A DNA stretch of 64,000 nucleotides from Leptolyngbya sp. KIOST-1 (GTDB taxonomy: Bacteria > Cyanobacteriota > Cyanobacteriia > Phormidesmidales > Phormidesmidaceae): NCBI RefSeq assembly GCF_000763385.1, contig NZ_JQFA01000004.1, forward strand, positions 930,001 to 994,000, given 5' to 3'. The notes beneath the pieces were generated by a model. It did no database searches. It worked only from the letters and a program-made list of their open reading frames with translations, and was not told where the DNA came from. The position numbers were made by a program, and so were the translations under genes. Positions 9,680 through 23,584 of the stretch are shown here, in pieces. Each line of letters starts with the position of its first letter. Position 1 is the stretch's first letter.

Positions 9680-9753
9680 TTTTGGTGGTTCTTATTTAAC
9701 GACTATTCTTTATCGAATCTTCAACGATCTTCAGGCTGCCAAAGACAAGCTGC

Positions 9754-10137
9754 TCATCCAGCTAAAGAAACTAATTCTTGTATTGATCTCAGGCTTATGT
9801 TGGCCGATAGGTAGCCAATTCCTCGATGCAGGTGTAACCTAAATTGGCCTGAGAGAGTATCCTTGTTGATTTCTATGCCGTCTCTCTCACATCTCTGTCT
9901 AAGTGCAATTATAAGCAAATCCGAGGTTTCTCCGCCAAACACTTGCCAGGTCATTTCTAAATTGCTGTCGGTAGGGATTGGCACTGGTGAGGGGGGAGTC
10001 GTCTCTGCCAATGAGAGGCAAAAGGCCCAACGGCAAAGAATGTTCCACTGGTCTATTTTGGTCGTTCGCTTTAGTTTGATGAGCTGATCCTTGCCAGCTT
10101 GGGAGATGCGAACACGGTCTACCGGGGGTTCTAGCAT
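9754..10137 (-). CDS. dndE: DNA sulfur modification protein DndE
   Basis: A 127-aa protein with the DndE pattern: RISQAGKDQLIKLKRTT, then WNILCRWAFCLSLAE, NLEMTWQVFGG, LRQRCERDG and FRLHLHRGIGYL. DndE forms an oligomer that binds nicked double-stranded DNA and is one of the core proteins for inserting sulfur in place of a non-bridging phosphate oxygen. I placed the start at the ATG at 10137 (MLEPPVDRVRIS), 5 bp after the dndD stop. The reading frame extends four codons further to a TTG, which is less likely. Length and motif order are normal for the family. Confidence 0.93.
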   Translation of the reverse strand: MLEPPVDRVRISQAGKDQLIKLKRTTKIDQWNILCRWAFCLSLAETTPPSPVPIPTDSNLEMTWQVFGGETSDLLIIALRQRCERDGIEINKDTLSGQFRLHLHRGIGYLSANISLRSIQELVSLAG

Positions 10138-10142
10138 AGTAC

Positions 10143-12113
10143 TTACCAAAAATAGCCGGGCTCAACATCGGTCTGGTGTTGCTTGGCATCGTAGCGCAGC
10201 AGGTACTCACGGCTGATCGCCTTACTGCTTCTAAGCTGTTCTACCTCAGCTTCGCGAATCTCGGTATCCGTAGACAACAGCAAAACCTGGTGGCTGGCTT
10301 GGGGGAAGTATTTTTCAACCAGGTTGTTGCGGTGGTAAGAGTCGAGCCGCCCCAGGGGCGTGTCGATCGCCACCGGCAACTGACGACCCGAGGCGCGGGC
10401 CAACCCCCACAGCAGGGCGATCGCCAGCAGCTGCTTTTCCCCCGCCGAGAGCCGATGCTTGGGTACCGGCTGGCCTGCCCGGTCAAACAATGCCAGGGTA
10501 AAGGCTTCGGTGTTAATTTCGACTCGATGCACCAGGTTGGACTTGTGCAACAAGTAGAGAAAGCATTGCGTCACCAGGGTTTCGAGCTGGTTCAGCTTGC
10601 GCAGTTTGAGCCGCTGTTTGAAGACCTTGAGCTTTTTCTGCACCGTCGCGATCGCCCTTAGAATGTGCTCGTCGTTCAAGTACTCCAGGGTGGCTTGGCT
10701 GTACTCCACCAGTTCTTTGCGGGCTTTGTCGATGGCGTGGATGATTTGGTTGTAGTCCTGCTGGGCCTTCTCGTGTTCCACAGCGAGGCGGGTCACCTCT
10801 GCCTGGGCTTGGTCTACCTGCTGGGATAGCTTTTCGTAAATTTCGGGAGAAGCGGCGGTGGCCAGATAGCGCTCGGTGGTTTCGATGGTTTCTTCCAGGG
10901 CTTGCAGGGCGGTGAGTCGTTCCTGGGCCAGCTGCTGCTGGGCTGGCAAGCCATGGTCTAGGAGCTGGGTCAGCTGGTGGAGGTGATCTACACTGGCGTG
11001 GAGCCAGGGCTCGGCATGGGGATGGGCCAGGTCGTCGTCTTCGCGGGCCAGGAAGTCTCGGATTTGCTCAACCGCAGTTTTTTTCAGCTTTAGGGTTTCC
11101 ACAAAGTCGATGAGGTGCTGGTTGCGCTTCTGGAGCAGGTCTTTGGCGGCCTGAAACTGCTGGTAACGGACTTCGACCTGAATCTGCGCCTGGGCTTCGC
11201 GCAGCAAGGGCTGAATCAGAGCCAGGGGTAGGCTGCCAGCGGCCAGGTCTCGGAGGGCTTGCCGCTGCACTTCAGCTTCGGCTTTGGCCTGCTGCAATTG
11301 CCGGTCGAGCTGGCTTTTTTCGGCGGCAATTTTGCCCCCTTCCGCAAAGAAGCGTTCCTGGGTTTCGCTCAGGGTTTTCTTAGCAATTTGGAGCTGGGTG
11401 TAGGTCGCAGCGATCGCCTTTTTGGCCGAGCGACGCTGGCCTTCCAGGTCATCAAGCTGCTGCTCAATGGCCTCTAACTGTTTGAGTTCCTGACTGCTGG
11501 AGAGCTTTTTGCGCTTGCGGGAGGCCAAGACATCGAGATCAGCAGAGAGGCGATCGGGCAGTTCTAGTCCCAGAAGCGATCGCATCGCTCCAATCACCGC
11601 TGGGGGCAGCTCGTCCTGTTCAGCTAGCTCCTTGACTTGTTCACCATCGAAAAGGAACAGGTTAGCAATCCCCAGGGGCAGCAAGTCCTCAATCCGCTGA
11701 TCCCAGCCTTTCTCCAGGGCTGGGTCTGGCTCCCCATTCACCAAAATTTCCAGCTGGTCGCGGCTGCTTTTGGCGTCTTTCATCCAGCTGCGGCAGATGC
11801 GAAATTCCGTTGGTTGGGCGGCGTTATTGAGGGTGAGCTGGAGTGATAGCTCTACAGCGGTGGATTCATCCTGGGCTTGGCGGTTGACAGCCTGGTTGAG
11901 AAATTCTTTGTAGGGTAAATTGCCACGGGTAGAGCAGGGGGCGCGGTGGCCATAGAGGGCCAGGCGAATAGCATCCATCAGCGTCGTCTTGCCGCCGCCA
12001 TTCATGCCGCCAAACAGAATGATCGGCTGCGCGGCATCCACCGGGGCCATATCGATGACCTGCCGTCCCCGATAGGGGCCAAAGTTTTGAAGCACCAGTT
12101 CGCGAAAAATCAC
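10143..12113 (-). CDS. dndD: DNA sulfur modification protein DndD (SMC-like ATPase)
   Basis: A 656-aa DndD. The N-terminus reads IFRELVLQNFGPYRG, with Walker A GGMNGGGKTT soon after. A long coiled coil fills the middle. The C-terminus has the ABC-type signature LSAGEKQLLAIALLWGLARA and Walker B region PVAIDTPLGRLDSYHR. DndD is the SMC/Rad50-like ATPase of the phosphorothioation complex and is thought to alter DNA structure or nick DNA during sulfur insertion. I chose a GTG start at 12113 because it gives the family-typical N-terminus and lies 4 bp after the dndC stop with GAGG upstream. A TTG seven codons earlier is the alternative. Confidence 0.93.
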   Translation of the reverse strand: MIFRELVLQNFGPYRGRQVIDMAPVDAAQPIILFGGMNGGGKTTLMDAIRLALYGHRAPCSTRGNLPYKEFLNQAVNRQAQDESTAVELSLQLTLNNAAQPTEFRICRSWMKDAKSSRDQLEILVNGEPDPALEKGWDQRIEDLLPLGIANLFLFDGEQVKELAEQDELPPAVIGAMRSLLGLELPDRLSADLDVLASRKRKKLSSSQELKQLEAIEQQLDDLEGQRRSAKKAIAATYTQLQIAKKTLSETQERFFAEGGKIAAEKSQLDRQLQQAKAEAEVQRQALRDLAAGSLPLALIQPLLREAQAQIQVEVRYQQFQAAKDLLQKRNQHLIDFVETLKLKKTAVEQIRDFLAREDDDLAHPHAEPWLHASVDHLHQLTQLLDHGLPAQQQLAQERLTALQALEETIETTERYLATAASPEIYEKLSQQVDQAQAEVTRLAVEHEKAQQDYNQIIHAIDKARKELVEYSQATLEYLNDEHILRAIATVQKKLKVFKQRLKLRKLNQLETLVTQCFLYLLHKSNLVHRVEINTEAFTLALFDRAGQPVPKHRLSAGEKQLLAIALLWGLARASGRQLPVAIDTPLGRLDSYHRNNLVEKYFPQASHQVLLLSTDTEIREAEVEQLRSSKAISREYLLRYDAKQHQTDVEPGYFW

Positions 12114-12117
12114 GGGT

Positions 12118-13740
12118 TTACGTCCTCGCCCCAAACTTCATTGCGCCCCAGGTGGGTGCCTCCTGAGTCTGGTCTTGGTCTTGTTGTTCAGGTTGGTCAG
12201 CCTCCGGTTGCTCTGGGGCAAAGAGTTGCTTGATAGTGTCTACCTCTCCACTGGTGGCCGCCTGCTGAACCAGCCGTCGGCTGCGGGCATAGTCCATGGC
12301 CTCATCCCTTGGCCGAGAACTGGTGTCAAAGGGTTTTTCGAGCGCCTCAATGACGCCCTTGCGGCGAGACATGGTTTGGTATTGGCGCTCGGTGTCTAGC
12401 AGCCTGGCGATCAGCTCAAACTGCATAGAGTCGTCGCAGATGTCTTCCAAAATGCTCCACTCGTCTTCCCCGAGCAGAGAGTTGCCCGCGTTAGGGCGAG
12501 GGTCACGAAATGGGATACCCGTGACGGTTTCGTAGATGCGGGGCAGGGAGTCATCAAACTCATGAAATTCTTCCAACCAGATGCGGCGAATTTCGCTGAG
12601 TTCTTCCAGGGCTATTAGCTCAATGTCCTTCATCTCGTTAGGGGCGTTGTGGCGGGCTTCGGCCTGGGCCTGCAAGACTCGCCGCAGCCATTCTTCGCGC
12701 CACTGTTTAGTGTAGGGGCCGGGAATATTTACCACTTCGGTGGTGTCGGCCCCTGGCACAGAGCGTTCATAGAGCTGCACATGGCCCTGTCGTCGTCGGA
12801 AGTCGCGCCGATCGAGGTCGTTTTCCACATCTAGTTCGTTGCGAAGATCGAGCAGCGGCTGCATCCACTCTTTCTCTTCGTCGTTTTGGATCATGGCTTC
12901 CATAGACTTGTCTTTGGCGACCAGGGTGCAGACCCAGCAGCCAAACCGCGAACTGCCGCAGCTGGGGGTGGAGGTGTCGATCACCAGAGGGCATTCGTTG
13001 TCAGCGGTGGCCCCTCGATACATGGTGAATAGGTCTTTGTTGTCGTTGCCCCAGGGGTTGGGCCACTGCATTAGGTACAGCCATACTTCGTCGGTGCGCC
13101 AGTCTTCGATGGGGGTGTAGATCAGCGAGTTGGGGCGGCTGGGGTTGTAGTTCATGTGAGAAAAGACCCGCCACTTGCGGTGCTCGGTCATGAGAGCGGC
13201 CCGGCTGGCGCTCTCGGCTTTGCGGGTGCCCAGCACGAGAATGACCTCGCCACTTTCTCGAATTTTTTCGCGAATGTAGTCGTCGGAGGGGCGAATTTTG
13301 AGGCGCTCGGTACACCAGCGGAATCCCTGACGCGGCGCGGGGTAGCCCTTGCCGATCAGGTTGACCCAAAAGGTATCTTTGACGGCGGGCTTGAGCAGCA
13401 GGGGTTCGATAGGCATTCCCTGGGCCTGGGCGGCACCTTTCATCTGCTCTAGGGATTGGCTCACCCAGGCGGCAACTACGGGGTTTTCGACCAGGGTGTC
13501 GGTGGTGATGACGTGGATGGTTTTGGTGCGCTGTTCGGGGGGCAGGGCGGCGATCGCACCCCAGACCAGTTGCAAAATAACGGTGGAATCTTTGCCGCCG
13601 GAGTAGCCAATAATCCACGGCAGCGAATCTTGGCAGTAGAGCTGCTGAATTTCGGCGGTCAGTGCCTGAATGTCTTCTACCAGTTCAGGGACAGTTCGTT
13701 GAGCCGGGTCAGTGGCCTCGGTGGGGGTAGGGTGGGTCAT
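12118..13740 (-). CDS. dndC: DNA phosphorothioation sulfurtransferase DndC
   Basis: A 540-aa protein matching DndC. The PP-loop SGGKDST is at residues 47-53 and RWCTERLKI follows in the middle. A Cys cluster, NECPLVIDTSTPSCG then FGCWVC, would carry the [4Fe-4S] cluster known for DndC. The enzyme has ATP pyrophosphatase activity and relays sulfur from a cysteine desulfurase to DNA. It is followed at once by dndD. The desulfurase gene dndA is absent from the window, so a chromosomal IscS/SufS is presumably used, as in other dndA-less systems. It is preceded by a 50-bp gap holding a TACGTAT repeat. Confidence 0.95.
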   Translation of the reverse strand: MTHPTPTEATDPAQRTVPELVEDIQALTAEIQQLYCQDSLPWIIGYSGGKDSTVILQLVWGAIAALPPEQRTKTIHVITTDTLVENPVVAAWVSQSLEQMKGAAQAQGMPIEPLLLKPAVKDTFWVNLIGKGYPAPRQGFRWCTERLKIRPSDDYIREKIRESGEVILVLGTRKAESASRAALMTEHRKWRVFSHMNYNPSRPNSLIYTPIEDWRTDEVWLYLMQWPNPWGNDNKDLFTMYRGATADNECPLVIDTSTPSCGSSRFGCWVCTLVAKDKSMEAMIQNDEEKEWMQPLLDLRNELDVENDLDRRDFRRRQGHVQLYERSVPGADTTEVVNIPGPYTKQWREEWLRRVLQAQAEARHNAPNEMKDIELIALEELSEIRRIWLEEFHEFDDSLPRIYETVTGIPFRDPRPNAGNSLLGEDEWSILEDICDDSMQFELIARLLDTERQYQTMSRRKGVIEALEKPFDTSSRPRDEAMDYARSRRLVQQAATSGEVDTIKQLFAPEQPEADQPEQQDQDQTQEAPTWGAMKFGART

Positions 13741-13790: not shown

Positions 13791-14168
13791 CTACATTTCC
13801 ATCTCGTCGGAGATTTGCCTATAGGTTTCAACCATTTCGCTGAGGCGGGTCTTGCCAGTGGTCGGTTCTCGGTTATACACAATCTCTGAGGCTTGCAGAA
13901 CCTGCTGTATCAAAGCATCTGCTTTCTGGTCAGCCTCTTCTACGTTTTCAACGTAAACCAGCTGAACTCCTAATTCGCTTGCCCGACGCTCCAGTTCTTC
14001 TGGTGAAAGGGTGGTTACCGCAAAGGCGATACACTCCTCACGATGCGTAGGCGTATCTCTGTCTTCAATCCAGACTTCGATGTCAACGTCTTCGGCTCCA
14101 ACGGCTGTCATAAACTGCTCAGACTCAGCTTCTGTACGAGTTATGATTTGAAACTCATACTGGACCAT
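13791..14168 (-). CDS. small acidic hypothetical protein between dndB and dndC
   Basis: A 125-aa acidic protein (about a fifth Asp/Glu) with no recognised domain. It starts 5 bp after the dndB stop and is clearly in the same operon. The stretch ERRASELGVQLVYVENVEEA suggests an alpha/beta fold. Canonical dnd operons run dndB-C-D-E without this gene, so it is an accessory of this locus. Function unknown. Confidence 0.72.
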   Translation of the reverse strand: MVQYEFQIITRTEAESEQFMTAVGAEDVDIEVWIEDRDTPTHREECIAFAVTTLSPEELERRASELGVQLVYVENVEEADQKADALIQQVLQASEIVYNREPTTGKTRLSEMVETYRQISDEMEM

Positions 14169-14173
14169 GGCGG

Positions 14174-15253
14174 TTATCTCCCTGCTAGTACGTAAACCCG
14201 CTCTAGCTGCTCCTCTTCTTGGGTCAGCGATAAGCCTAATGCCTTTTTGATGTAGGTCGTCATGAAAATAACGCTGGTTTTAGATTTTGACAGCCGCCCA
14301 GCCACCATAATGCGCCCCTCCCAGTCACGGTTGGAGCGCAGCCAGTCGATCTTGCGCAGCCCCCGCAGCAGTTCCGCCCAGTCGCCGTCGGGGTAAGTCG
14401 CAATTAGCGCGGCCCCGGCTTTGCCAATGCCTGACAAGGTAACGGCGTGGCTGTGGACGTACTCGCGCCGAATCTCGCCAGCGCTCACTTCCTTCGCGAG
14501 CACCTGGTGCCAGTCAAGAATGTTTTGACTGACCGCCTCCCAAAAGCGGACGGCAAGGGCAATTTTTTCCTCTATGGCAGCATCGCGGTGGTTGGTTAAC
14601 AGGTGCTGAGTGGCGCTGTAGATGGCGCTGAGGGTGAACAGTTTGCTAGAGCGCACCGGCAGGTTGCTGCGCTCTGGGTCTGTCAGCTTGGCGAAAATGG
14701 GTACCCGCTTGACGACCTCCTTGGAGAGGATCGCTTTCTTGTCGCGGGAGTCGTAGAGGATGTTGAGGGAGGCGTCGGGGCGGGCGGCGTAGCGGTTGAG
14801 GTCGGTGAACATCTGCTGCGATCGCTTTAGCCCCAGGTCGAGGAAGAACACTACAGCAATGGTTTCATCCCCCAATTCGGGGTTTTCCTTCAGCGCCTGC
14901 TCGAAGGCCGCTCGGCGGTGCTGCCCATCGTTGATGACAAACCGGGCATCCATAGGGATCTTGAGTTGGCCGATGTCTTCCCCAGCTACGGCTTCAAAGG
15001 CGACGGTGGCATTCACCGAGACTGTGATCGCTGAGAACACATAGTCTTTGGGGTTGTCGATGATATAGCGGGCAATCTCGGGCACCCGCTGCTTGTTGAG
15101 TACCCGCTGAGACCTGAGTTCAGCAGGGATCTCCTCATCGTCGAACGAGAACAGCTTGGGGATGAGACGCACCGGGCACATGGAGACGTAATACTCGTGC
15201 CCCGCCTGAATGCCCCTGATAGCCGGAAACAGATACTCGAATGGGAGAGCCAT
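14174..15253 (-). CDS. dndB: DNA sulfur modification protein DndB
   Basis: A 359-aa DndB. The DGQHR signature is at residues 109-113 (INDGQHRRAAFEQAL) and is followed by QQMFTDLNRYAARPDASL, both family hallmarks. DndB is dispensable for phosphorothioation in studied systems but affects its level or specificity and can act as a regulator. I chose the ATG at 15253 (MALPFEYLFPAIRG) instead of a start 12 codons upstream because it gives the usual N-terminus. It is the first gene of the dnd operon and has a plausible promoter immediately upstream (15285-15313). Confidence 0.92.
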   Translation of the reverse strand: MALPFEYLFPAIRGIQAGHEYYVSMCPVRLIPKLFSFDDEEIPAELRSQRVLNKQRVPEIARYIIDNPKDYVFSAITVSVNATVAFEAVAGEDIGQLKIPMDARFVINDGQHRRAAFEQALKENPELGDETIAVVFFLDLGLKRSQQMFTDLNRYAARPDASLNILYDSRDKKAILSKEVVKRVPIFAKLTDPERSNLPVRSSKLFTLSAIYSATQHLLTNHRDAAIEEKIALAVRFWEAVSQNILDWHQVLAKEVSAGEIRREYVHSHAVTLSGIGKAGAALIATYPDGDWAELLRGLRKIDWLRSNRDWEGRIMVAGRLSKSKTSVIFMTTYIKKALGLSLTQEEEQLERVYVLAGR

Positions 15254-15284
15254 AGAACTAGCCCAAGACCTTCCCAAGCAAGAT

Positions 15285-15313
15285 ATCATAAAAAATAACG
15301 CACAGCACGTTAA
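15285..15313 (-). promoter_or_regulatory. candidate sigma70-type promoter of the dnd operon
   Basis: On the minus strand, TTAACG (15308-15313) is followed after exactly 17 bases by TATGAT (15285-15290). The predicted transcript would begin about 25 nt before the dndB ATG at 15253. The -10 matches five of six consensus bases and the -35 only four, so this is a fair but not certain promoter. Confidence 0.45.
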
Positions 15314-15658: not shown

Positions 15659-16153
15659 TTACCCCTTCCAGCTTTCATTTTGATTAACTGAATCTCTCAA
15701 TAGCTTAGTATAGGTTCGAAGAAACTCCTCAACGTGGTAAGGCTTTGAATCAAGTTTCTCGGAAAGATAGTCATATCCACCACTGGCATACTCGTTCAAT
15801 CTGTCTATTCCTATATCAGTTAAGTTTGTTGGATGCTGTGGATCAACTAAATCAATAAATAGTTTGCGAATCTCATCCTTTTCAGTGACACTAACCCCTA
15901 AACGGGAAAGTTCTGATCTTATGAGCAAACCTATAATTAGCCTTTGATAAGGCTTATAGTCGCTCACAAAATTATCCATAAAGTCTGTTACTTCAGAACA
16001 CTGTTTCACTGGATCAGTTTTGCGGCCCACAGCCAACCCAAGCATTAAGCAAAAATAGTAAAGATCAAATTTAGTGCGGATTGGCTTCTGGTCTCGAATA
16101 TTAGAGAACCAATTTTCAGTATCCTGGCGGATTCTAAAGTTCTTAAATGCCAT
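15659..16153 (-). CDS. small protein with DndE-like N-terminus, last gene of AT-rich module
   Basis: A 164-aa protein. I took the ATG at 16153 (MAFKNFRIRQ), which has GAGGG upstream; an earlier ATG would overlap the preceding gene by 17 bp. The first ~40 residues, FRIRQDTENWFSNIRDQ then KFDLYYFCLMLGLAVG, follow the same pattern as DndE in this window (RISQAGKDQLIKLKRTT then WNILCRWAFCLSLAE). The rest is helical and unrecognised. It directly follows a DndD-like ATPase gene, mirroring the dndD-dndE order. A DndE-like partner of that ATPase is inferred by eye only. Confidence 0.7.
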   Translation of the reverse strand: MAFKNFRIRQDTENWFSNIRDQKPIRTKFDLYYFCLMLGLAVGRKTDPVKQCSEVTDFMDNFVSDYKPYQRLIIGLLIRSELSRLGVSVTEKDEIRKLFIDLVDPQHPTNLTDIGIDRLNEYASGGYDYLSEKLDSKPYHVEEFLRTYTKLLRDSVNQNESWKG

Positions 16154-16157
16154 ATTC

Positions 16158-18131
16158 TTATCCCTCTGCCTCATTTAAATCAAATTTATCAAAATATTCC
16201 TTACCCTCTATGAGAGCTGAATTTGAGGTTTTTTTGACTCCCTCAGCAGGAAGTGAAAGCATCAAACTTTCTGTGCCAGGTGTAAGTCTAAATAAAGTAA
16301 AGAACTTGGTTGAGCTTCCCGAACTTTCATGCAAAATATCTGTGAATCCTGCTCTCTCCGATGAAATTGTAAATGCAACAAATTGCTTGCAAAGACTAGG
16401 TATCAGCTTTGCAATTTCTCGCCGTACTTCCATTGAAAGAGGGTTTGCTGGGCTGTCTACAATTAGTGGAAACTGATGCTGTCCTCTACTTAATAAAGTT
16501 GTTAAGAAAGTGTAACCAACAGAAAGAGTCTGGCCAACACTTGCTCCTTCCTGATTTCGAAGTTTAAGGGAACGATCAATTTTTTCGATTCGAATTGGAT
16601 CACGCGACAGCACCCTTTCAAGACGGTTGTTACATTCCTCAGCAATCGCCATTTGCAGGTTTAACTGTGCTTTCTTAAAGGCCTGTTCAACTATCATCGT
16701 TAAGATATCTGTTTTAGCACGCAGTTCTAAAGTCCCTGTAATTTCTGCTAGATCACTCTCTGCACTCTTGAGCAACTTCTTTAACGATGCTAGACAGAGA
16801 GTACTCTCGTTATCACTAGAGCTTGCACTACGATCTATGTCTTCAAGCAAGTCTTTTAGTTTCTTTCTGCGCTCATCCTTACTTTTTCGCTCATCAACCC
16901 AGATTCTTAGTTCTTCATCACCCTTATCAATTAGTTCTTGCTCTAAAACTCTAACAGCAGTTTCAGCTAGCTTATTGTCCGATACTGCTCTCTCTAAAAT
17001 TTCTATTTTTTGAGTTAAGTCTACCGATGTTTCATTTCCTACTTGACGCACTTGAAGATCGATATCTTGTTTCAGTGCATTTAATATTCCAGACGTATCT
17101 TCAGCTAAGTAAAGTTCGCTCCGCTTACTGATTACCTCCCGTGAGTGGCTATCTAAAGGACGTCCGCAGATGCACTCATCTTCCTCCAATAACTCATTAA
17201 AAAATTGACTCGATGTACTAGCTGGTAAGCGCAAACGATCTAATTGGAGTTTAAGCTCTCCTAACGAATCGGAAAAAGCCTCATGCAATAAGTGAGGTTG
17301 TCGAATTCGGTTCATTACCTCTAATGCCGAAGCTTCAACTCTATTGCGAGCATTAATCTCATCACGTTTTTTTGCTTCGAAGTTGTCTCGTAAAGTTTGT
17401 TCACTACCAATCTGATCGTTGATTTTTTGCTCTAATAACTCTATTTGTGTTTCTAGGGTTTCTAACTCTATAACTGCTTCTTCTCGGGCTTCAGATACCC
17501 GGCTTATTCTTTCTCTTAACTTATCAACCTTATTTCTACGCTGGCTTAATCCCTTTTCAGCTTTTGCACTCTTGTTCTTGGTTGCTGTCTCCCAAGACTT
17601 TTCTGCTAATTGTTTTATATCTTGCAGTAAATATAGTTGAAAAAGTGCATCAATTGCTTTAGAAGCTTCCGACTCATTTGAATCCAAAAGTTTATCTGCA
17701 AATTCGCCATCAAACACAAACAACTGAACAAACCTACTGTCAAGGAATCGTTTTACTTCCGGCGGAGGATCCCAACCAGGTTTTATTCCTCCACTCCCAA
17801 CAGAAGTAGTGCGATATTCAGCTTTTCCTCTATCAAAATCTAATTTAAGCTCAAATGTTAGAGGTTTTTCATCTACTCTTAGTTTTAGTATGAAAATTCC
17901 TGCTGAATGAGATTCAGCAGGTCTACGGAGACTTCTAATTTTTTCTGGAGTCCATCCTGATGCTTCTCCATTCATTGAAGCTCGTATCATTGTTAAAGTT
18001 GTGGTCTTGCCTGTTCCATTAGGCATCTGTATTAGTGATACAGGTGTAATCTCTTCATGATTAGTTAAATCAATTTCAACATCAGGACATCGTAAGCCTT
18101 CGCTTTTCCAACCAGCCAACTCAATTTTCAT
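16158..18131 (-). CDS. DndD/Rad50-like SMC-family ATPase
   Basis: A 657-aa AAA/SMC-type ATPase starting MKIELAGWKSEGLRCPD. Walker A is MPNGTGKTTT (residues 36-45), and FVQLFVFDGEFADKLLD recalls the DndD 'LFLFDGEQVKEL' segment. A long coiled coil follows, with a zinc-hook-like CICGRPL at about residues 320-326. The C-terminal ATPase half has the D-loop-type PLIVDSPANPLSMEVR. It is a second DndD/Rad50-like protein, distinct from dndD. The ATG at 18131 overlaps the preceding 68-aa gene by 11 bp. A role in sensing DNA structure or assembling the neighbouring helicase-nuclease is inferred. Confidence 0.82.
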   Translation of the reverse strand: MKIELAGWKSEGLRCPDVEIDLTNHEEITPVSLIQMPNGTGKTTTLTMIRASMNGEASGWTPEKIRSLRRPAESHSAGIFILKLRVDEKPLTFELKLDFDRGKAEYRTTSVGSGGIKPGWDPPPEVKRFLDSRFVQLFVFDGEFADKLLDSNESEASKAIDALFQLYLLQDIKQLAEKSWETATKNKSAKAEKGLSQRRNKVDKLRERISRVSEAREEAVIELETLETQIELLEQKINDQIGSEQTLRDNFEAKKRDEINARNRVEASALEVMNRIRQPHLLHEAFSDSLGELKLQLDRLRLPASTSSQFFNELLEEDECICGRPLDSHSREVISKRSELYLAEDTSGILNALKQDIDLQVRQVGNETSVDLTQKIEILERAVSDNKLAETAVRVLEQELIDKGDEELRIWVDERKSKDERRKKLKDLLEDIDRSASSSDNESTLCLASLKKLLKSAESDLAEITGTLELRAKTDILTMIVEQAFKKAQLNLQMAIAEECNNRLERVLSRDPIRIEKIDRSLKLRNQEGASVGQTLSVGYTFLTTLLSRGQHQFPLIVDSPANPLSMEVRREIAKLIPSLCKQFVAFTISSERAGFTDILHESSGSSTKFFTLFRLTPGTESLMLSLPAEGVKKTSNSALIEGKEYFDKFDLNEAEG

Positions 18132-18327
18132 GAAGATCACCAGTTACGTTAACAGTAATAGCAGATCGGACATTTTCTAAATAATCTTGCTCATCACTTG
18201 CACTAAGTTCTGAAGTACTCATGGCGTTAAGCCATGCTTCAATTCGTTTGGCAACCTTGTCTAACTGACCTGACTCGCTTACGGCCTCATAAAGAGCACT
18301 AATAACTTCATAATCTAAGCTTGACAT
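18121..18327 (-). CDS. small acidic protein in PLD-helicase/ATPase module
   Basis: A 68-aa acidic protein (MSSLDYEVISALYEAVSESG...). I chose the ATG at 18327, which has AGGAG about 12 nt upstream inside the end of the helicase gene and leaves only a 2-bp gap. A longer frame starting at 18375 would overlap the helicase. It overlaps the ATPase start by 11 bp. Such tight packing suggests a stoichiometric complex. No domain is recognised. Confidence 0.65.
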   Translation of the reverse strand: MSSLDYEVISALYEAVSESGQLDKVAKRIEAWLNAMSTSELSASDEQDYLENVRSAITVNVTGDLHEN

Positions 18328-18329
18328 CT

Positions 18330-20363
18330 TTACTCTATTCTCCTGGTTTGCGAAAGTGCAGATAGCCAAATGCACCGAGCCTCATCTGCATTTAGTTCAT
18401 TGTCTTCATCCTCTTTAGAACGCACAAAATCAACGATCATTGCTCTTTTTTCAGGAAAACTTGGATCAGTACGCAGACATCTTCCAATGCGTTGAATGGT
18501 CTCTAGCCGCGCTCTCGAAGATGAAAATAGGATAACGTTTTGAAGATTTCGGATATCAATTCCTTGTGATATACGATGACAAGTAATCAAGCAATCAATA
18601 CTGCCTCGAGAAAAATCAACCAAATTTCGGCGGTCATCTTCTGCATAATACGTTCTATAGCGGTGAGTGTAGGAATCCAATGCTTCTAAAATCGGTTCAC
18701 CATAGGCTTTATCCTCTACGAATATAATGGTAGATTTAATCACCTGAGGATTTAAACTCAGATATTCGGCGAAAATTTCCGGTTTCTTTTCTGCCGTTTT
18801 ATAGACTCGCGCAAGTTCTGTCCACAACTCCTGTTTGGTCATCGGTCTACCTTCCCGTTGTCGAGCCGAACGTTTAGCATAAACTTGTTGCAAACGCTGC
18901 CGATCACCTTCTGTAACAGGGTAGGTTAATGGAACATAATCAAACTCACACAAGATACCTCTTTCAATCGCTTCTTTTAGCCCAAATTGGAAGAACACAT
19001 CACCAATTTCTTCGAAAATAAACTTTGTTCCTTCTTGATCGTATTCTCTTTCTGGAGTTGCACTTAGTCCCAACCTGTATCCAAAAGCCTGATGTTCTCC
19101 TGCAAGTTTAGTTCGCAGTGATGGGCTTCCTAATCCGTGCACTTCATCATGAATAATGATCAAACGCTCTTTGAAACTACTGTCGAGGCGGTTAAACAAA
19201 GAGGCAAGCTGTTCACGGGAAATAACTAATATGGCTCGATTATGGTTTAAAGCAAACTCTCCTAACTCATGATGCTTATCATAATGTCTTAAAACCCTAT
19301 ATGGGCGAAGTCGTTTGATAGCCCAAGGTTCGATCTCCTTCCGCCATTGGTCTAATAAATCTGTTCCTTCTGTACTAATAACAATTCCATCGATTTCATT
19401 GTTTTGATCGAGCACTGAAAGAATATTAATTGCTGTACGGGTTTTTCCTGTGCCCGTAGCCATTTCTAAAACTCCATGTCTTATTTTCAGAAAAGCAGCA
19501 ATTGCCTCATCTTGATGTCTCCATTGAACTTTATCTCTCTTATCTTGTTGAGAGTTTGTTAAGCCATTTAAATAAGTGTTGGGTTTGTCTTTTGCTATCG
19601 ATTTTTTGAGGTCACACTCAAGATCAACGCTGGGCTTCTTGTCTGGAGCTTTGCTACGAATTAGTGCGGCGGACTCTAGCGATAGTGGTAAAACTTTTAA
19701 ACCCACAGCCTTTGCTGCCCAGGCTTCTTCAAATTGTTCCTGTTTAATACGAACCCTTTCCTCATCTCCAGAAATCCAACTTCGGTAAACATCAATCGAC
19801 TCATAATTACGTTCATATCCATTTTCTGACTCATTAGCTGAACCGGTAAAGGCAACTTTGTCACCCCATGGAAAACGAAAAATACCTATCTTCTCATGAA
19901 ATATTCCTGGCTTTTCAACATGCTCTGGAAATGCAAACTGGAGAACAAGATGGTCATTTGCCACCATCCAAGCAAATAACTGTATGCTTCTTTCAATATA
20001 GTCACTTACAATTGGTTCATTCAAAAGCTCCTCAATAAGGCTTTCGGCAGAAAGCTTTCTGAGCTTTTGTCTCTCTTGTTCGTTTAAAGCATTCTGTAAT
20101 GCAATACGATCTCCACTAGATAGTTCAGGGGATATTAGCAAATATATTTTTACTGATTCCTCGCTAAATCTTGGCAAGACATCCAGCCATGCAAGCAGTG
20201 CCTTGCTTGAGAAGTAGCCGACAGCCCTCTGATATTCTAAGCAATGCCTTAAACAAGGAGAAAAAAACTCTTTCCCGAGGTTTGATTCTCCGCTTCGATA
20301 ATGACTTGCCAAACTTCTGATGAAATCCTTGCTAATTAATATTTCATCTGAGTTGTTATGCAT
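18330..20363 (-). CDS. PLD-nuclease domain fused to DEAD-like superfamily 2 helicase
   Basis: A 677-aa two-domain protein. Residues ~25-230 resemble a phospholipase D-type phosphodiesterase domain: RAVGYFSSKALLAW (44-57), then a single HxK ... GSANES signature (FHEKIGIF at 155-162, FTGSANESENGY at 172-183). Residues ~280-677 are an SF2 helicase: Walker A ATGTGKT (302-308), box II DEVH (406-409), motif III SATPE (434-438), then a C-terminal domain with HRISQGIDIRNLQ and QRIGRCLRTD. The architecture fits a DNA-translocating nuclease of restriction or defence type. It lies 2 bp from both neighbours. A decayed relative lies at 20861-21343. Confidence 0.88.
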   Translation of the reverse strand: MHNNSDEILISKDFIRSLASHYRSGESNLGKEFFSPCLRHCLEYQRAVGYFSSKALLAWLDVLPRFSEESVKIYLLISPELSSGDRIALQNALNEQERQKLRKLSAESLIEELLNEPIVSDYIERSIQLFAWMVANDHLVLQFAFPEHVEKPGIFHEKIGIFRFPWGDKVAFTGSANESENGYERNYESIDVYRSWISGDEERVRIKQEQFEEAWAAKAVGLKVLPLSLESAALIRSKAPDKKPSVDLECDLKKSIAKDKPNTYLNGLTNSQQDKRDKVQWRHQDEAIAAFLKIRHGVLEMATGTGKTRTAINILSVLDQNNEIDGIVISTEGTDLLDQWRKEIEPWAIKRLRPYRVLRHYDKHHELGEFALNHNRAILVISREQLASLFNRLDSSFKERLIIIHDEVHGLGSPSLRTKLAGEHQAFGYRLGLSATPEREYDQEGTKFIFEEIGDVFFQFGLKEAIERGILCEFDYVPLTYPVTEGDRQRLQQVYAKRSARQREGRPMTKQELWTELARVYKTAEKKPEIFAEYLSLNPQVIKSTIIFVEDKAYGEPILEALDSYTHRYRTYYAEDDRRNLVDFSRGSIDCLITCHRISQGIDIRNLQNVILFSSSRARLETIQRIGRCLRTDPSFPEKRAMIVDFVRSKEDEDNELNADEARCIWLSALSQTRRIE

Positions 20364-20365
20364 AA

Positions 20366-20692
20366 TTAATTATCCTTAGATCGAATTAATGACTCTAAGG
20401 CTCTTTCAAGTTCTTCTGATCGTCTTTTATACTGGTGTTCCTGAATTAGTTCCTCTAGACAGTGATTCTCTTCTTCAGAGATTTCGCTCAGTGAATTATG
20501 GTTTTCAATAGTAAACTTATTTTTTAGACTCCACCTATAATAAATATCCCTCGAAACTAATTCTCGCAACGAAGTGTATAAGTATTGATTTACTTCCTTC
20601 CGCGTTGAACCTATGGCCGTTGCAATTCTCCTAGCTCGAACAGGAATTCCTTTCTTTAAGACTTTAATTATTGCGACCTCAATATCATCCAT
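20366..20692 (-). CDS. winged-helix DNA-binding protein, first gene of AT-rich module
   Basis: A 108-aa protein whose first ~60 residues form a winged helix: IIKVLKKGIPVRARRIATAI, then GSTRKEVNQYLYTSL, ending near YYRWSL. The RKEVNxYLY and Y...W pattern recalls Z-alpha-type winged helices, but this is only a visual likeness. The second half is a charged helix. It ends 2 bp before the helicase start and heads the five-gene leftward operon. It could be the operon's regulator or a nucleic-acid-sensing subunit. Confidence 0.72.
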   Translation of the reverse strand: MDDIEVAIIKVLKKGIPVRARRIATAIGSTRKEVNQYLYTSLRELVSRDIYYRWSLKNKFTIENHNSLSEISEEENHCLEELIQEHQYKRRSEELERALESLIRSKDN

Positions 20693-20860: not shown

Positions 20861-21343
20861 TCAATGGACAGCCTGAAATTCCCCTTCAAGGTAGCTTGCA
20901 TCAAGCATGTACTGAGTTAGTGGCCAAGCAAACAAGCCAAACGATTTTGAAGGCCTGTTCCAACTCGCGCAGCAGCGCCCACTCGATCCCTGGTCTCGCC
21001 CTCGCAGCCCTCGGGCGCTTCCGGAACGGATCGCTCTGCAAATCGCCTCAATGTCATCGTTCGACAGCTTTGGCGACGTTACCAACTGCATCCGCCCTTG
21101 TGAACGGACAAACGCCGTCAACCCCTGGGCCACCGCCGCCATCGATGAGCTAGAGAAAAACCCCACCGCCCGACTGTAGCCCGACGACTGCTCTAGACAA
21201 GGGATGTAGAAATCCTGGATGAGGTGATCGCGATGGCCCCTAGGGGCCGGTCTTTGACCATCGCTACGATACTCATCTCGAATCTGTAGCTCTTTCAGGC
21301 TCAAGGCGCAAAGCTCAAGGAGGTTGCCTTCGAGTATAGGCAA
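20861..21343 (-). pseudogene. decayed N-terminal fragment of a second PLD-helicase gene
   Basis: The frame DFYIPCLEQSSGYSRAVGFF, then LVTSPKLSNDDIEAICRAIR matches the PLD N-terminus of the intact gene at 18330-20363 (FFSPCLRHCLEYQRAVGYF, LLISPELSSGDRIALQNAL). After about residue 105 the translation becomes Arg/Ser-rich. A neighbouring frame there gives the plausible IEWALLRELEQAFKIV, and the first frame then resumes with FGLFAWPLTQYMLD (intact gene: IQLFAWMVANDHL). This means compensating frameshifts. The HxK motif and the whole helicase are missing. It is more GC-rich than the intact gene, so it is a diverged relative and not a recent duplicate. Confidence 0.75.
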
Positions 21344-21488: not shown

Positions 21489-21998
21489 CTAGGTTTCCGT
21501 CCAGAGCAGTCGCAGCCTTTGACTAAACGCACCTCGGTCAATGCGCCGCTGCATCTGGCAAGCCAGCACTTGGTTCCGCTGAATGCCATACGCGCCCATC
21601 GTTGCATCAATCACCTCGCAGAGGTCAGCGAGTTCGGTCACCAGGTTGGTCTCCACAGCCTCAGCGGCTTCCTGCGCTTCCTCGATCAGCTTTTGCCGCA
21701 ATGCCTGGCAGTAGTCGGCCTGGGTCATCTCCTCAATGCCAAACTTGATCTGTTGGCTTTCTAGAATTTCGGGGATGCGATCGCGCACCAGCTTGTTATA
21801 TTCCTTGCGCACCATAAACGTAGATTCCTCTCCGGGGGGATAGTAGAGCAGCGTGTAGTCACGACCAGTCGCAGCGCGACGCAGCACCCGTAGACATTCT
21901 TCCGCATCAGAGCGGCGACGAAAGCGATTGACCACTATCCGCTGCATGTCGGGCAGAAAGCGCACAATCGCCCAAACATGGAATGGGCTGATATTCAT
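21489..21998 (-). CDS. MazG-like / phosphoribosyl-ATP pyrophosphohydrolase-family protein
   Basis: A 169-aa protein. Residues ~60-150 carry the all-alpha NTP pyrophosphatase pattern: EYNKLVRDRIPEILES, then LRQKLIEEAQEAAEAV and ELADLCEVIDA, with the acidic residues that bind magnesium. Proteins of this type hydrolyse nucleoside triphosphates and are common in phages and defence islands. The N-terminal ~55 residues (RIVVNRFRRRSDAEECLRVL) form a separate small domain often seen in cyanobacterial proteins. I took the ATG at 21998 over one 16 codons upstream. It is divergent from the XRE regulator at 22149. Confidence 0.78.
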   Translation of the reverse strand: MNISPFHVWAIVRFLPDMQRIVVNRFRRRSDAEECLRVLRRAATGRDYTLLYYPPGEESTFMVRKEYNKLVRDRIPEILESQQIKFGIEEMTQADYCQALRQKLIEEAQEAAEAVETNLVTELADLCEVIDATMGAYGIQRNQVLACQMQRRIDRGAFSQRLRLLWTET

Positions 21999-22071
21999 GC
22001 TGTAATAACTTGAGCCAGGGCAAATGAGGGTGAGACACTGATCCACAGTGCCCTCCCGGTGTTTTTAGCCT

Positions 22072-22148: not shown

Positions 22149-22379
22149 ATGCCGCGATCTCAGTCCGATCAGCCTAACCAGCCAACCCTTAAAGACTTGA
22201 GAAAGCGAGCGGGGCTTTCCCAGGAGGCGCTAGCGCGGATTTTGGATGTCAGCGGCAAGACCGTGAGCAACTGGGAGCGAGGCATGAGTATAGCTAGCCT
22301 CACGGTGCCGCAAATGAAAGCCCTATGCGATGCCCTAGGTGTAACGCTCAGTGAACTGCCCGATGACTTTAGCTCTTAG
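22149..22379 (+). CDS. XRE-family helix-turn-helix regulator
   Basis: A 76-aa protein that is essentially one Cro/CI-type helix-turn-helix: LRKRAGLSQEALARILDVSG, KTVSNWERG, then MKALCDALGVTLSELPDDF. It likely regulates itself and the divergent MazG-like gene, and perhaps the HNH gene 41 bp downstream with which it is probably cotranscribed. Palindromes in the upstream region are candidate sites. Confidence 0.88.
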   Translation: MPRSQSDQPNQPTLKDLRKRAGLSQEALARILDVSGKTVSNWERGMSIASLTVPQMKALCDALGVTLSELPDDFSS

Positions 22380-22420
22380 CTGCCTACCCTATAGGCAACC
22401 CTTGTAGTGAGTCCCTAGGT

Positions 22421-23584
22421 ATGGATGACGATCGACTGCCTTCTGGGGCTTTTAGTCAATTACCTGACTCAAGCAAGGTCAATGTTGCTGCACTAACCCG
22501 TCTATTTGCCAGCACCACCAACTCCTACAAATACCTCTTCTTTCTGTCACTGCTCGATATTATGAGGCGTCGCTGCTTTGAGGTGACAGAGCCGATCAGC
22601 TTTCAAGACCTGATTGTGGAGATGCTGTCTAACGCCTGGTTCCCCCACACGTTTTTCAAATTGTCCTTTGGCACCCAAGACCAAGTGGCTCAAAAGCTGG
22701 ATGCCCTGGATCTAACTATCACTGAGCCCATTATCCGCTTTCGCGATACCGATAAAACCCTTTTCAGAAGAGCGATCGCTCTTCAGGATTTAGATGATGT
22801 GGTGTCTCACCTCAGCCGTTACGTTCCCTTCCGGCTGATTGCGCCCTTTCTAGAACACCAACTGGCGGGAGTCAGTCGGGGCAAGGGGAACCAGCTAGAG
22901 GTCGCTATACCTGCGATCGCAAACCGTTGCTTCAACAGCGACAAACCACTCTACCGATTTGACTCAGAACAGCACAACCGCTGTCAGGCGGTGATCATCC
23001 ATCCAGCCTGGGCCAGCTACCTAGAGCAGCACCACGGAATTGTGCGCGGTTGGGCCGCGTGGGAATGGCTGACTTACATGCAAAAACGGAACCCGAGTAC
23101 TCCGGCGATCGCTAACAAGCTGTTCATGCCCACCCGGCGCGATTCGCTGACCAAGCAGACCGACTACTGGAAGTTGGTGCTGTGCTCCCAACCGCTCCGC
23201 TGCATCTATTCTCAGCAGGTGATTGACCCCAACCGCTTTTCCCTAGATCATTACCTGCCCTGGTCATTTGTGGCTCACGACCAGCTATGGAATTTGGTGC
23301 CGACACTGCCAGAGGTCAATTCAGCTAAATCGAACAATCTTCCATCCAATGAGTACTTTGCCCAGTTTGTGACAGTTCAACATTCTGGGCTCTTGGCCAC
23401 TCGCGAAGCCTTAACAGCAGGCAAATGGGAAAGACAGATAGAGCCTTTTATCAATGATTTAGGCATAAGCACTCAGGATGAACTGCTAGATGTGCAGCGA
23501 CTCGGGAATGCTTATGAACGTGTGGTAAAACCACTGGTATCCCTGGCCGCGAACCAGGGTTTTAGCATTGAGTGGCGATATTAA
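22421..23584 (+). CDS. HNH endonuclease domain protein
   Basis: A 387-aa protein with a C-terminal HNH nuclease motif at residues ~265-305: CIYSQQVIDPNRFSLDHYLP, then WSFVAHDQLWNLVPT and AKSNNLPS. That gives D-H, a distal His and the N ... K of a beta-beta-alpha metal finger. The N-terminal ~250 residues (NSYKYLFFLSLLDIMRRR and onwards) are conserved-looking but unassigned and may bind DNA or a partner. The type resembles HNH enzymes of modification-dependent restriction, so recognition of modified DNA is possible but not shown. It is preceded by the XRE regulator and converges on the VWA gene. Confidence 0.8.
   Translation: MDDDRLPSGAFSQLPDSSKVNVAALTRLFASTTNSYKYLFFLSLLDIMRRRCFEVTEPISFQDLIVEMLSNAWFPHTFFKLSFGTQDQVAQKLDALDLTITEPIIRFRDTDKTLFRRAIALQDLDDVVSHLSRYVPFRLIAPFLEHQLAGVSRGKGNQLEVAIPAIANRCFNSDKPLYRFDSEQHNRCQAVIIHPAWASYLEQHHGIVRGWAAWEWLTYMQKRNPSTPAIANKLFMPTRRDSLTKQTDYWKLVLCSQPLRCIYSQQVIDPNRFSLDHYLPWSFVAHDQLWNLVPTLPEVNSAKSNNLPSNEYFAQFVTVQHSGLLATREALTAGKWERQIEPFINDLGISTQDELLDVQRLGNAYERVVKPLVSLAANQGFSIEWRY

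What the first reader, a model, noticed from the sequence alone, without database searches (positions are those of the whole stretch)
15659..20692. Five-gene winged-helix / PLD-helicase / SMC-ATPase module beside dndBCDE: candidate undescribed defence system
Five leftward genes are packed with gaps of 2 bp or overlaps of about 11 bp: winged-helix protein, PLD-type nuclease fused to an SF2 helicase, 68-aa acidic protein, DndD/Rad50-like ATPase with a CxCG hook, and a small protein with a DndE-like start. This is not the known DndFGH or Ssp/Pbe layout as I know them. Directly upstream of a dnd operon, it could restrict DNA lacking phosphorothioate, or be an independent SMC-nuclease defence system (Lamassu-like logic, different parts).
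Basis: partly seen in the sequence, partly recalled or inferred. Interest (0 to 1): 0.85.

Follow-up and report, generated by a model that had tools for sequence, protein, structure and literature searches.

The report
PbeABCD phage-defence operon with extra gene
The five genes are a known type of bacterial antiviral operon (PbeABCD, a partner of sulfur-tagged DNA) carrying one extra small DNA-binding gene that close cyanobacterial relatives also carry and that seems to be exchanged between them.

Summary
Genes 2-5 are PbeABCD, also called the CxC ABC-ATPase system: PbeA (PLD-SF2 helicase, PADLOC E=6e-261), PbeB (Pfam Sp-CxC, E=7e-17), PbeC (ABC ATPase with a CICG hook) and PbeD. It was published in 2019 as a phosphorothioate-dependent antiviral cassette and re-annotated in 2024.

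What looks new is gene 1, a 108-aa protein, probably winged-helix. It lies 2-5 bp before pbeA in 5 of 5 cyanobacterial loci with PbeA at least 72% identical, and beside none of 34 distant full-length PbeA places. In the window, genes 1-5 form one low-GC block, 39% against 56% for dnd. Between two relatives, gene 1 and pbeABC have different histories, switching at pbeA codons ~8-11. Related domains occur in other defence loci. Most likely gene 1 is an operon-specific regulator; a sensor or targeting subunit is the bolder reading. It resembles eukaryotic Z-DNA-binding (Zalpha) domains, but so does a generic winged-helix control. Verdict: new variant of a known kind.

The parts
20366..20692 (-). 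Gene 1 (wHTH): 108-aa protein, first gene of the operon; HTH at about residues 3-40, conserved N35-L38-Y39 and W54, long C-terminal helix. The wing is inferred from homology, not modelled
   Evidence: model mean pLDDT 70 with residues 49-71 under 50 and no strands; PADLOC ZorC C-terminus match E=1.7e-5
18330..20363 (-). pbeA: PLD/HKD nuclease-like domain fused to SF2 helicase
   Evidence: PADLOC PbeA E=5.8e-261; ResIII, Helicase_C, and PLDc_2 just under its cut-off; H156, K158, S175, N177 and helicase motifs invariant in 14 of 14 aligned PbeA
18121..18327 (-). pbeB: 68-aa acidic small protein (Sp-CxC)
   Evidence: Pfam PF20304 E=7.1e-17, 61.6 bits against cut-off 27.5 (on the 84-aa long start); start refined
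16158..18131 (-). pbeC: ABC ATPase with CICG zinc hook
   Evidence: PADLOC PbeC E=1.2e-21 (on the 660-aa long start); CxC hook in 11 of 11 PbeC-type rows and 0 of 4 DndD rows of alignment A7
15659..16153 (-). pbeD: 164-aa last gene
   Evidence: homologous to the last Pbe gene of Rhizobium, Priestia, Methylobacterium and Halorubrum loci, 25-50% identity; DndE relation not shown here
14174..15289 (-). dndB
   Evidence: TIGR03233 and PF14072 above cut-off
13791..14168 (-). 125-aa ORF between dndB and dndC, also present there in G400 and G425
   Evidence: no convincing family match
12118..13740 (-). dndC
   Evidence: TIGR03183 E=4.8e-205
10143..12134 (-). dndD
   Evidence: TIGR03185 E=3.7e-190
9754..10149 (-). 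dndE
   Evidence: PF08870 E=1.3e-41, TIGR03184

Best explanation
A probably horizontally acquired PbeABCD (CxC ABC-ATPase) antiviral operon sits beside a dndBCDE phosphorothioation operon. Inferred action: DndCDE puts phosphorothioate marks on host DNA; the PbeC-PbeD ATPase/DNA-binding pair scans DNA; PbeB restrains or couples the complex; PbeA (SF2 helicase with an HKD-type nuclease domain) blocks replication of, or cleaves, incoming phage DNA. The extra first gene, a probable winged-helix protein, is most likely an operon-specific DNA-binding regulator (autorepressor or activator) travelling with its own promoter. Shown here: gene identities, motifs, order, low-GC block, conservation of gene 1 and its separate history from pbeA. 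From the literature (a haloarchaeal relative): PT-dependent block of viral DNA replication, all four genes contributing. Inferred: all biochemistry in this organism, and the regulatory role of gene 1.
For: Family matches. CxC hook in 11/11 PbeC-type and 0/4 DndD rows that I aligned. PLD and helicase residues kept in 14/14 PbeA. Four-gene cassette next to dnd in Rhizobium, Priestia and Halorubrum plasmids. No DptF (DndFGH marker) in the own genome while a positive-control plasmid rings, so Pbe is a natural partner for dndBCDE. Literature: first part and passages of PMC6459918; abstract, passages and section 16 of PMC10853773. Gene 1: adjacent in 5 of 5 close loci and 0 of 34 distant full-length PbeA places; GC 35.5% matches the module and not the flanks; dN/dS 0.17-0.20 in the 2 of 10 pairs that can be measured. 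Its first-gene position, and a history shared with the upstream intergenic DNA rather than with pbeA, fit a regulator-plus-operator cassette.
Against: No inverted repeat is shared by the five upstream regions, and the promoter scan found 8 sites against a shuffled mean of 13.3, so no operator or promoter was identified. A related domain is fused to a helicase-nuclease in a BREX-linked protein, and gene 1 matches the ZorC C-terminus, which points to a subunit instead. The five loci are one PbeA clade, so 5/5 against 0/34 is not 39 independent events. The own genome holds a second, divergent Pbe-like locus, so the pairing with this dnd operon is not proven. One PbeC-type ATPase beside another PbeA (L078) shows no CxC[GA] pattern, so the hook is not universal.
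Confidence: 0.6

Rival explanations
1. Gene 1 is a structural subunit: a small nucleic-acid-sensing or targeting adaptor that works with PbeA and is exchanged like a specificity subunit.
For: A related domain forms the N-terminus of a 1579-aa helicase-REase protein directly after brxL of a BREX-1 operon (weak hit, 37% over 59 residues, E=7e-3, found with the ParAB-operon relative of gene 1; same N-L-Y-W residues). PADLOC ZorC C-terminal hits in all five Pbe copies, E 2e-8 to 2e-5. Gene 1 lies 2-5 bp before pbeA in 5 of 5 and evolves faster than pbeA (41-44% against 72-75% identity to the window).
Against: Not found in the six plasmid Pbe loci read here (L033-L038) nor in 72,556 plasmid records with gene 1 itself as query; in Vibrio plasmids a related domain sits in an HATPase-like protein paired with an HTH protein beside other operons, which looks regulatory.
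Confidence: 0.28
2. The module is inactive or decaying here, or works with another modification.
For: Xiong et al. report 320 of 553 PbeAC pairs without dndCD nearby; G460 carries the cassette with a broken pbeC and no dndB or dndD match, and only a distant dndC-like one (E=6e-22), on its 17.7-kb contig; a remnant of another pbeA lies beside the module.
Against: All five window genes are open and PbeA and PbeC keep their motifs; dndBCDE is open and adjacent.
Confidence: 0.1
3. An independent, undescribed SMC-nuclease defence system.
For: Five tightly packed genes, one of them (gene 1) in no named defence family beyond the ZorC C-terminus match.
Against: Genes 2-4 match named families strongly, gene 5 is their known companion, and the four form a published cassette.
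Confidence: 0.02

Closest known systems
PbeABCD / CxC ABC-ATPase system (Xiong et al. 2019; Rakesh et al. 2024)
   Same: Gene content and order of genes 2-5, CxC hook, PLD-SF2 fusion, small acidic protein, location beside dnd
   Different: Extra gene at the 5' end, found so far only in a cyanobacterial subclade; PbeA 36-51% identical to the Rhizobium, Priestia, Methylobacterium and Halorubrum examples
DndFGH (DptFGH) restriction module
   Same: Also a partner of DndBCDE
   Different: DptF not found in this genome; DptG and DptH not searched
Zalpha domains (ADAR1, ZBP1, PKZ, ORF112) and bacterial Zalpha-like domains
   Same: HTH fold; N-L-Y-W tetrad in 8 of 8 cyanobacterial members; Zalpha chains among the nearest PDB matches of the family profile
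   Different: Strict published motif not matched, no wing prolines, matches not specific, best profile hit is not a Zalpha (PscE), Tyr lost in 3 of 3 Vibrio/Citrobacter relatives
WYL-type defence-operon regulators such as BrxR and CapW (recalled, from no call)
   Same: A DNA-binding regulator gene at the 5' end of a defence operon
   Different: No WYL domain found; only marginal PADLOC WYL hits for two relatives, E about 0.01

Membership tests
PbeABCD / CxC system | PbeA: PLD(HKD)-SF2 helicase | tested here: met
   the Asp of the classical HxKxxxxD motif (recalled) is Arg in the window
PbeABCD / CxC system | PbeB: small rapidly evolving protein (Sp-CxC) | tested here: met
   PF20304 above cut-off
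PbeABCD / CxC system | PbeC: ABC ATPase with CxC hook | tested here: met
PbeABCD / CxC system | PbeD: cognate of the CxC ATPase in the same cassette | tested here: met
   homology to PbeD in other cassettes
PbeABCD / CxC system | PbeD is a clade-2 DndE (two RHH domains) | tested here: inconclusive
   hhalign 0.2%; model pLDDT 44; no PDB relatives
PbeABCD / CxC system | Adjacent to dnd modification genes (frequent, not universal) | tested here: met
   window; dndB lies on the fetched stretch in 4 of the 5 loci of the subclade, window included
PbeABCD / CxC system | PT-dependent antiviral activity | not testable with these tools
   shown for the Haloterrigena jeotgali A29 genes in PMC6459918
DndFGH | DptF present | tested here: not met
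   (positive control rings)
Zalpha domain | N-L-Y-W tetrad | tested here: met
   8 of 8 Pbe and ParAB members; Tyr lost in 3 of 3 Vibrio/Citrobacter relatives
Zalpha domain | Published search motif Nx(2)LYx[LM]x(8,20)W | tested here: not met
   0 of 8 (motif from PMC11293857)
Zalpha domain | Pfam z-alpha model PF02295 | tested here: not met
   no match for the window protein in the lists, nor for this genome; 4 of 6 members of alignment A1 match at E<=10, best 0.0013
Zalpha domain | Nearest structural or profile relatives are specifically Zalpha | tested here: inconclusive
   for; PscE is the top hit in 76 and 86, ties with Lrp-type regulators, and (generic wHTH also hits Zalpha) is against
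Zalpha domain | Binds left-handed DNA or RNA | not testable with these tools
   bench test proposed
Lamassu / Wadjet | PADLOC Lamassu or Jet proteins | tested here: not met
   for PbeC only a partial JetC match, E=3.1e-4; no match named Lamassu in the lists of the five proteins

The most novel reading that the evidence does not exclude
Gene 1 is a fifth, swappable subunit of a cyanobacterial Pbe subtype: a winged-helix nucleic-acid sensor, of a domain family recurring in unrelated phage-defence loci (BREX-linked helicase-nuclease, ZorC C-terminus, HATPase-HTH pairs), that licenses or targets the PbeA helicase-nuclease. In its boldest form (about 0.05) its conserved Asn-Leu-Tyr...Trp surface reads a left-handed or otherwise distorted helix made during phage replication, a prokaryotic counterpart of Zalpha immune sensors.
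Probability: 0.2. Interest if true: 0.75.

Novelty: new variant of a known kind. Interest (0 to 1): 0.42.

Why it matters
The four-gene core is known but its mechanism is disputed: replication block without cleavage (Xiong) against nuclease action or suicide (Rakesh). A subtype with a dedicated, exchangeable DNA-binding gene gives a handle on how Pbe is switched on or aimed. It also flags a small HTH domain that recurs in several defence loci. If gene 1 is only a regulator, the finding is a modest extension of a known system.

Tried and rejected
Undescribed-system reading: rejected. PbeD-DndE link by profile, structure (model too poor) and PDB sequence search: nothing.

Zalpha identity of gene 1: pursued, then downgraded. 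With the family profile 12 of 15 PDB sequence hits at E<=10 are Zalpha chains (one of them, 2l4m, recognised by its alignment and recall), but the best hit is PscE, which is not. A cyanobacterial wHTH segment without the Asn and Trp (L090:1465-1659) also finds Zalpha chains, E=8e-4, better than gene 1 does. The window protein alone gives only E 0.73 or worse to Zalpha. Foldseek E-values are 0.33 or worse. VIA-align Z 5.8 ties with Lrp/AsnC-type regulators at about 5.5. The Pfam z-alpha model matches 2 of 388 genomes, in wHTH segments of large proteins, and not the window's genome. PMC11298590 reports bacterial Zalpha-like domains that do not bind Z-DNA (passages).

Operator search and promoter scan: nothing convincing; G425 has a perfect 6+6 inverted repeat upstream of gene 1, one base off in G460 and not seen in the other three (read by eye). 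Viral contigs with the gene-1 profile, PbeA or the ParAB relative: no relatives. Plasmids with gene 1: none. Phages with the Acinetobacter domain: none. A search of 153 genomes for ZorC found 4 matches, all at gene-1 relatives, so the ZorC tail could not be read. PHROGs: only PbeA matches, mostly helicases.
Full report
Observation. The five leftward ORFs exist as described at 15659-20692. With starts refined by homologues, the gaps are +2, +2, -11 and +4 bp and the small acidic protein is 68 aa. They are followed after 369 bp by dndB, a 125-aa ORF, dndC, dndD and dndE.

Identity of genes 2-5. Gene 2 matches PADLOC PbeA at E=5.8e-261 over residues 18-657. NCBIfam's dnd_restrict_1 matches it well below the cut-off (182.7 against 600 bits). 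Gene 3 matches Pfam PF20304 'Small protein from certain CxC ATPase-based DNA modification systems' at E=7.1e-17. Gene 4 matches PADLOC PbeC at E=1.2e-21, with DndD models further down. Its CxC hook is present in 11 of 11 PbeC-type rows and absent from 4 of 4 DndD rows that I chose to align. Outside that set, the ATPase beside PbeA in L078 shows no CxC[GA] pattern. Gene 5 is homologous to the last gene of Pbe cassettes in Rhizobium, Priestia, Methylobacterium and Halorubrum (25-50% identity); the counterpart in Natribaculum was not recognised by it. Rakesh et al. 2024 (PMC10853773: abstract, passages, section 16) state that PbeA is the HKD-SF2 protein, PbeB the small protein, PbeC the CxC ATPase and PbeD a DndE, and count DndD and CxC systems in tandem in 936 bacterial and 41 archaeal taxa. 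Xiong et al. 2019 (PMC6459918: first of seven parts and passages) showed that the DndCDEA-PbeABCD genes of Haloterrigena jeotgali A29, placed in strain CJ7-F, stop virus SNJ1 by inhibiting DNA replication in a PT-dependent way. There pbeB, pbeC and pbeD were essential and pbeA partly so.

Is PbeD a DndE? I could not confirm it: profile-profile probability 0.2%, structure model pLDDT 44, no PDB relatives. The statement rests on the paper.

Setting. The module has 39.2% GC, against 56.4% for dnd and 54.6% for the window. Of 236 overlapping 5-kb stretches sampled across the window only one is as low (39.1%; presumably one that overlaps the module). The low-GC block starts at gene 1 (35.5%) and ends with pbeD, so all five genes look acquired together. 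One of 63 genomes of the order holds this PbeA type at E<=1e-100, namely the window's own; seven of 26 genomes of the genus hold a PbeA-like match at E<=1e-50, apart from the window's own copy all at 30-33% identity. DptF is absent from the own genome while a control plasmid rings. Cysteine-desulfurase-like genes occur elsewhere in the genome, but none reaches the DndA cut-off. A second, divergent locus (PbeA at 30% identity) with dnd_assoc_4 and a protein matching PT-DNA_restrict below its cut-off lies on another contig.

Gene 1. In draws of 388 genomes of the class, five genomes hold PbeA at least 74% identical to the window's by the search's local alignment (72% for G425 over the full alignment); all five, the window's own included, have a gene-1 match directly before pbeA. 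I count 34 further full-length PbeA places (query start at or before 20, end at or after 630; 29-33% identity); none has a gene-1 match on its contig. Left out of that count were partial matches, among them G397 (62% identity over residues 13-306) and G322. Only a few candidates per genome were scored in those searches, so counts are lower bounds. Gene 1 was also not found, by single-sequence search, in 21 separately read loci: L017-L023 and L033-L038, L073-L080. In L019 and L077 only about 320 and 190 bases upstream are available, and L073 is the broken G397 gene. The five form one clade, so this is co-inheritance, not independent repetition. Gene 1 is under purifying selection where that can be measured (dN/dS 0.20 and 0.17 in 2 of 10 pairs; the other 8 are saturated) and diverges faster than pbeA (41-44% against 72-75% identity to the window).

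Exchange. G448 and G460 share 94% of pbeA nucleotides but only 63% of gene 1, and G460's gene 1 is closest to G425's (75%). The best single breakpoint lies at alignment columns 1961-1972, pbeA codons ~8-11. Left of it 54 of 181 informative sites join G460 to G448; right of it 464 of 507. None of 300 shuffles reached the observed likelihood ratio. Fisher p for a split near that point, chosen after seeing the sliding window, is 6e-55. Sites are linked and the place was chosen, so the p-value overstates, but the switch is plain in the window table. Which genome is the recombinant, and whether gene 1 or pbeABC moved, is not settled; either way gene 1 and its upstream DNA have a history separate from pbeA.

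What gene 1 is. The model (three sequences) shows an HTH and a long C-terminal helix; the would-be wing is modelled as low-confidence helix, so 'winged helix' is inferred from homology. Zalpha domains make up 12 of 15 PDB sequence hits of the family profile at E<=10, but the best hit is PscE, not a Zalpha (same top hit). Asn35, Leu38, Tyr39 and Trp54 correspond to the published Zalpha tetrad (PMC11293857, passages and sections 4 and 8) in 8 of 8 members. The control undoes the specificity: a wHTH segment without Asn and Trp finds Zalpha at least as well. The strict motif fails in 8 of 8, the wing prolines are missing, the Pfam z-alpha model does not match the window protein, and the fold score ties with Lrp-type regulators. 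Bacterial Zalpha-like domains tested in PMC11298590 did not bind Z-DNA; some of the bacterial candidates described there lacked the Asn and Tyr (passages). I keep the Z-form reading only as a low-probability option.

Where else the domain occurs. (a) N-terminus of the third gene of an operon in three cyanobacterial genomes; in the one scanned (L024) the first two genes match ParA and, weakly, ParB. (b) With that relative as query, the N-terminus of a 1579-aa helicase-REase protein (matches to PADLOC PDC-S37, Mokosh and Hhe models) right after brxL on an Acinetobacter plasmid, a weak hit by itself (E=7e-3). (c) With that domain as query, the N-terminus of 'ATP-binding' proteins paired with an HTH or DNA-binding protein, beside type I restriction, SAVED/nucleotidyltransferase or multiubiquitin-ThiF genes on Vibrio and Citrobacter plasmids; the two Vibrio copies match HATPase_c below its cut-off, the Citrobacter copy does not. 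(d) A match to the ZorC C-terminus in all five Pbe copies, E 2e-8 to 2e-5. Asn, Leu and Trp persist across the 11 aligned sequences; Tyr does not. This leaves two live roles: regulator of the operon (preferred) or DNA-sensing subunit of the complex.

Literature. I found no report of a winged-helix gene in Pbe operons in the listings, nor in the wHTH passages of PMC10853773 (one search shows 12 of 13 places); supplements were not readable. For Zalpha in cyanobacteria the search listed ten papers, none about this by title. Other papers were seen as passages only: PMC8775963, PMC11890865, PMC12707154, PMC11298590; the rest as search listings.

Verdict. A known antiviral system with one new-looking, lineage-specific, exchangeable accessory gene.

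Noticed in passing
window 20861-21343 (-); L070:6573-6722: Remnant of the N-terminus of another, divergent PbeA (PADLOC PbeA E=2.8e-25 over residues 16-107) between the MazG-like gene and gene 1; a shorter remnant sits at the same place in G460.
   Followed up: partly
window 21489-22046 (-): MazG/PRA-PH-like gene (matches below cut-off) upstream of the module; it or a homologue lies upstream of gene 1 in 5 of 5 loci.
   Followed up: partly
window 13791-14168 (-): 125-aa ORF of unknown family between dndB and dndC, conserved in G400 and G425; a 75-aa N-terminal match lies beside another PbeA in L022.
   Followed up: partly
window 12118-13740 (-), residues 441-469: DndC C-terminus weakly matches Pfam Sp-DndD, the small protein of Dnd systems (E=0.0034, below cut-off), possibly a fused small protein.
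   Followed up: no
window 7727-9679 (-): 650-aa protein with a DGQHR motif and weak DndB similarity after dndE, 39% GC like the Pbe module rather than dnd.
   Followed up: no
window 22149-23584 (+): HTH gene plus a 387-aa HNH protein (weak Cas9-HNH matches); a relative of the HNH protein also lies downstream of the Pbe cassette in G460 (L070:13613-14359).
   Followed up: no
G000:C2:3761000-3780000 (L018): Second PLD-helicase/CxC-ATPase locus of the same genome, TIGR04095 type above cut-off, with dnd_assoc_4 and a PT-DNA_restrict-like protein, and partial dndC/dndD-like ORFs at its edge.
   Followed up: partly
L024, L025, L026 around 6900-12100: Three-gene operon in three cyanobacterial genomes with a wHTH protein that has a hydrophobic C-terminal stretch as its last gene; in L024 the first gene is ParA with an HSDR_N-like N-terminus and the second weakly ParB.
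   Followed up: partly
L098:6001-7669, L099:5989-7648, L100:6001-7684: Two-gene unit (wHTH 'ATP-binding' protein, HATPase_c-like in the two Vibrio copies, plus HTH/DNA-binding protein) beside restriction, SAVED/nucleotidyltransferase and multiubiquitin-ThiF genes on plasmids: a possible shared defence-operon regulator.
   Followed up: partly
L070:9681-11529: pbeC of G460 matches only over its first 94 residues and is followed by other ORFs; no pbeD recognised on the contig.
   Followed up: no
L015:14742-17464: Between pbeD and dndB the Lyngbya locus carries a 585-aa protein (N-terminus matches PADLOC DpdB, E=5.9e-13) and an HNH protein.
   Followed up: no
phage records H20, H21 (MT835506.1, MT835493.1): PbeA-like proteins at 26% identity covering 93-95% of PbeA on two unannotated gut phage contigs.
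   Followed up: no
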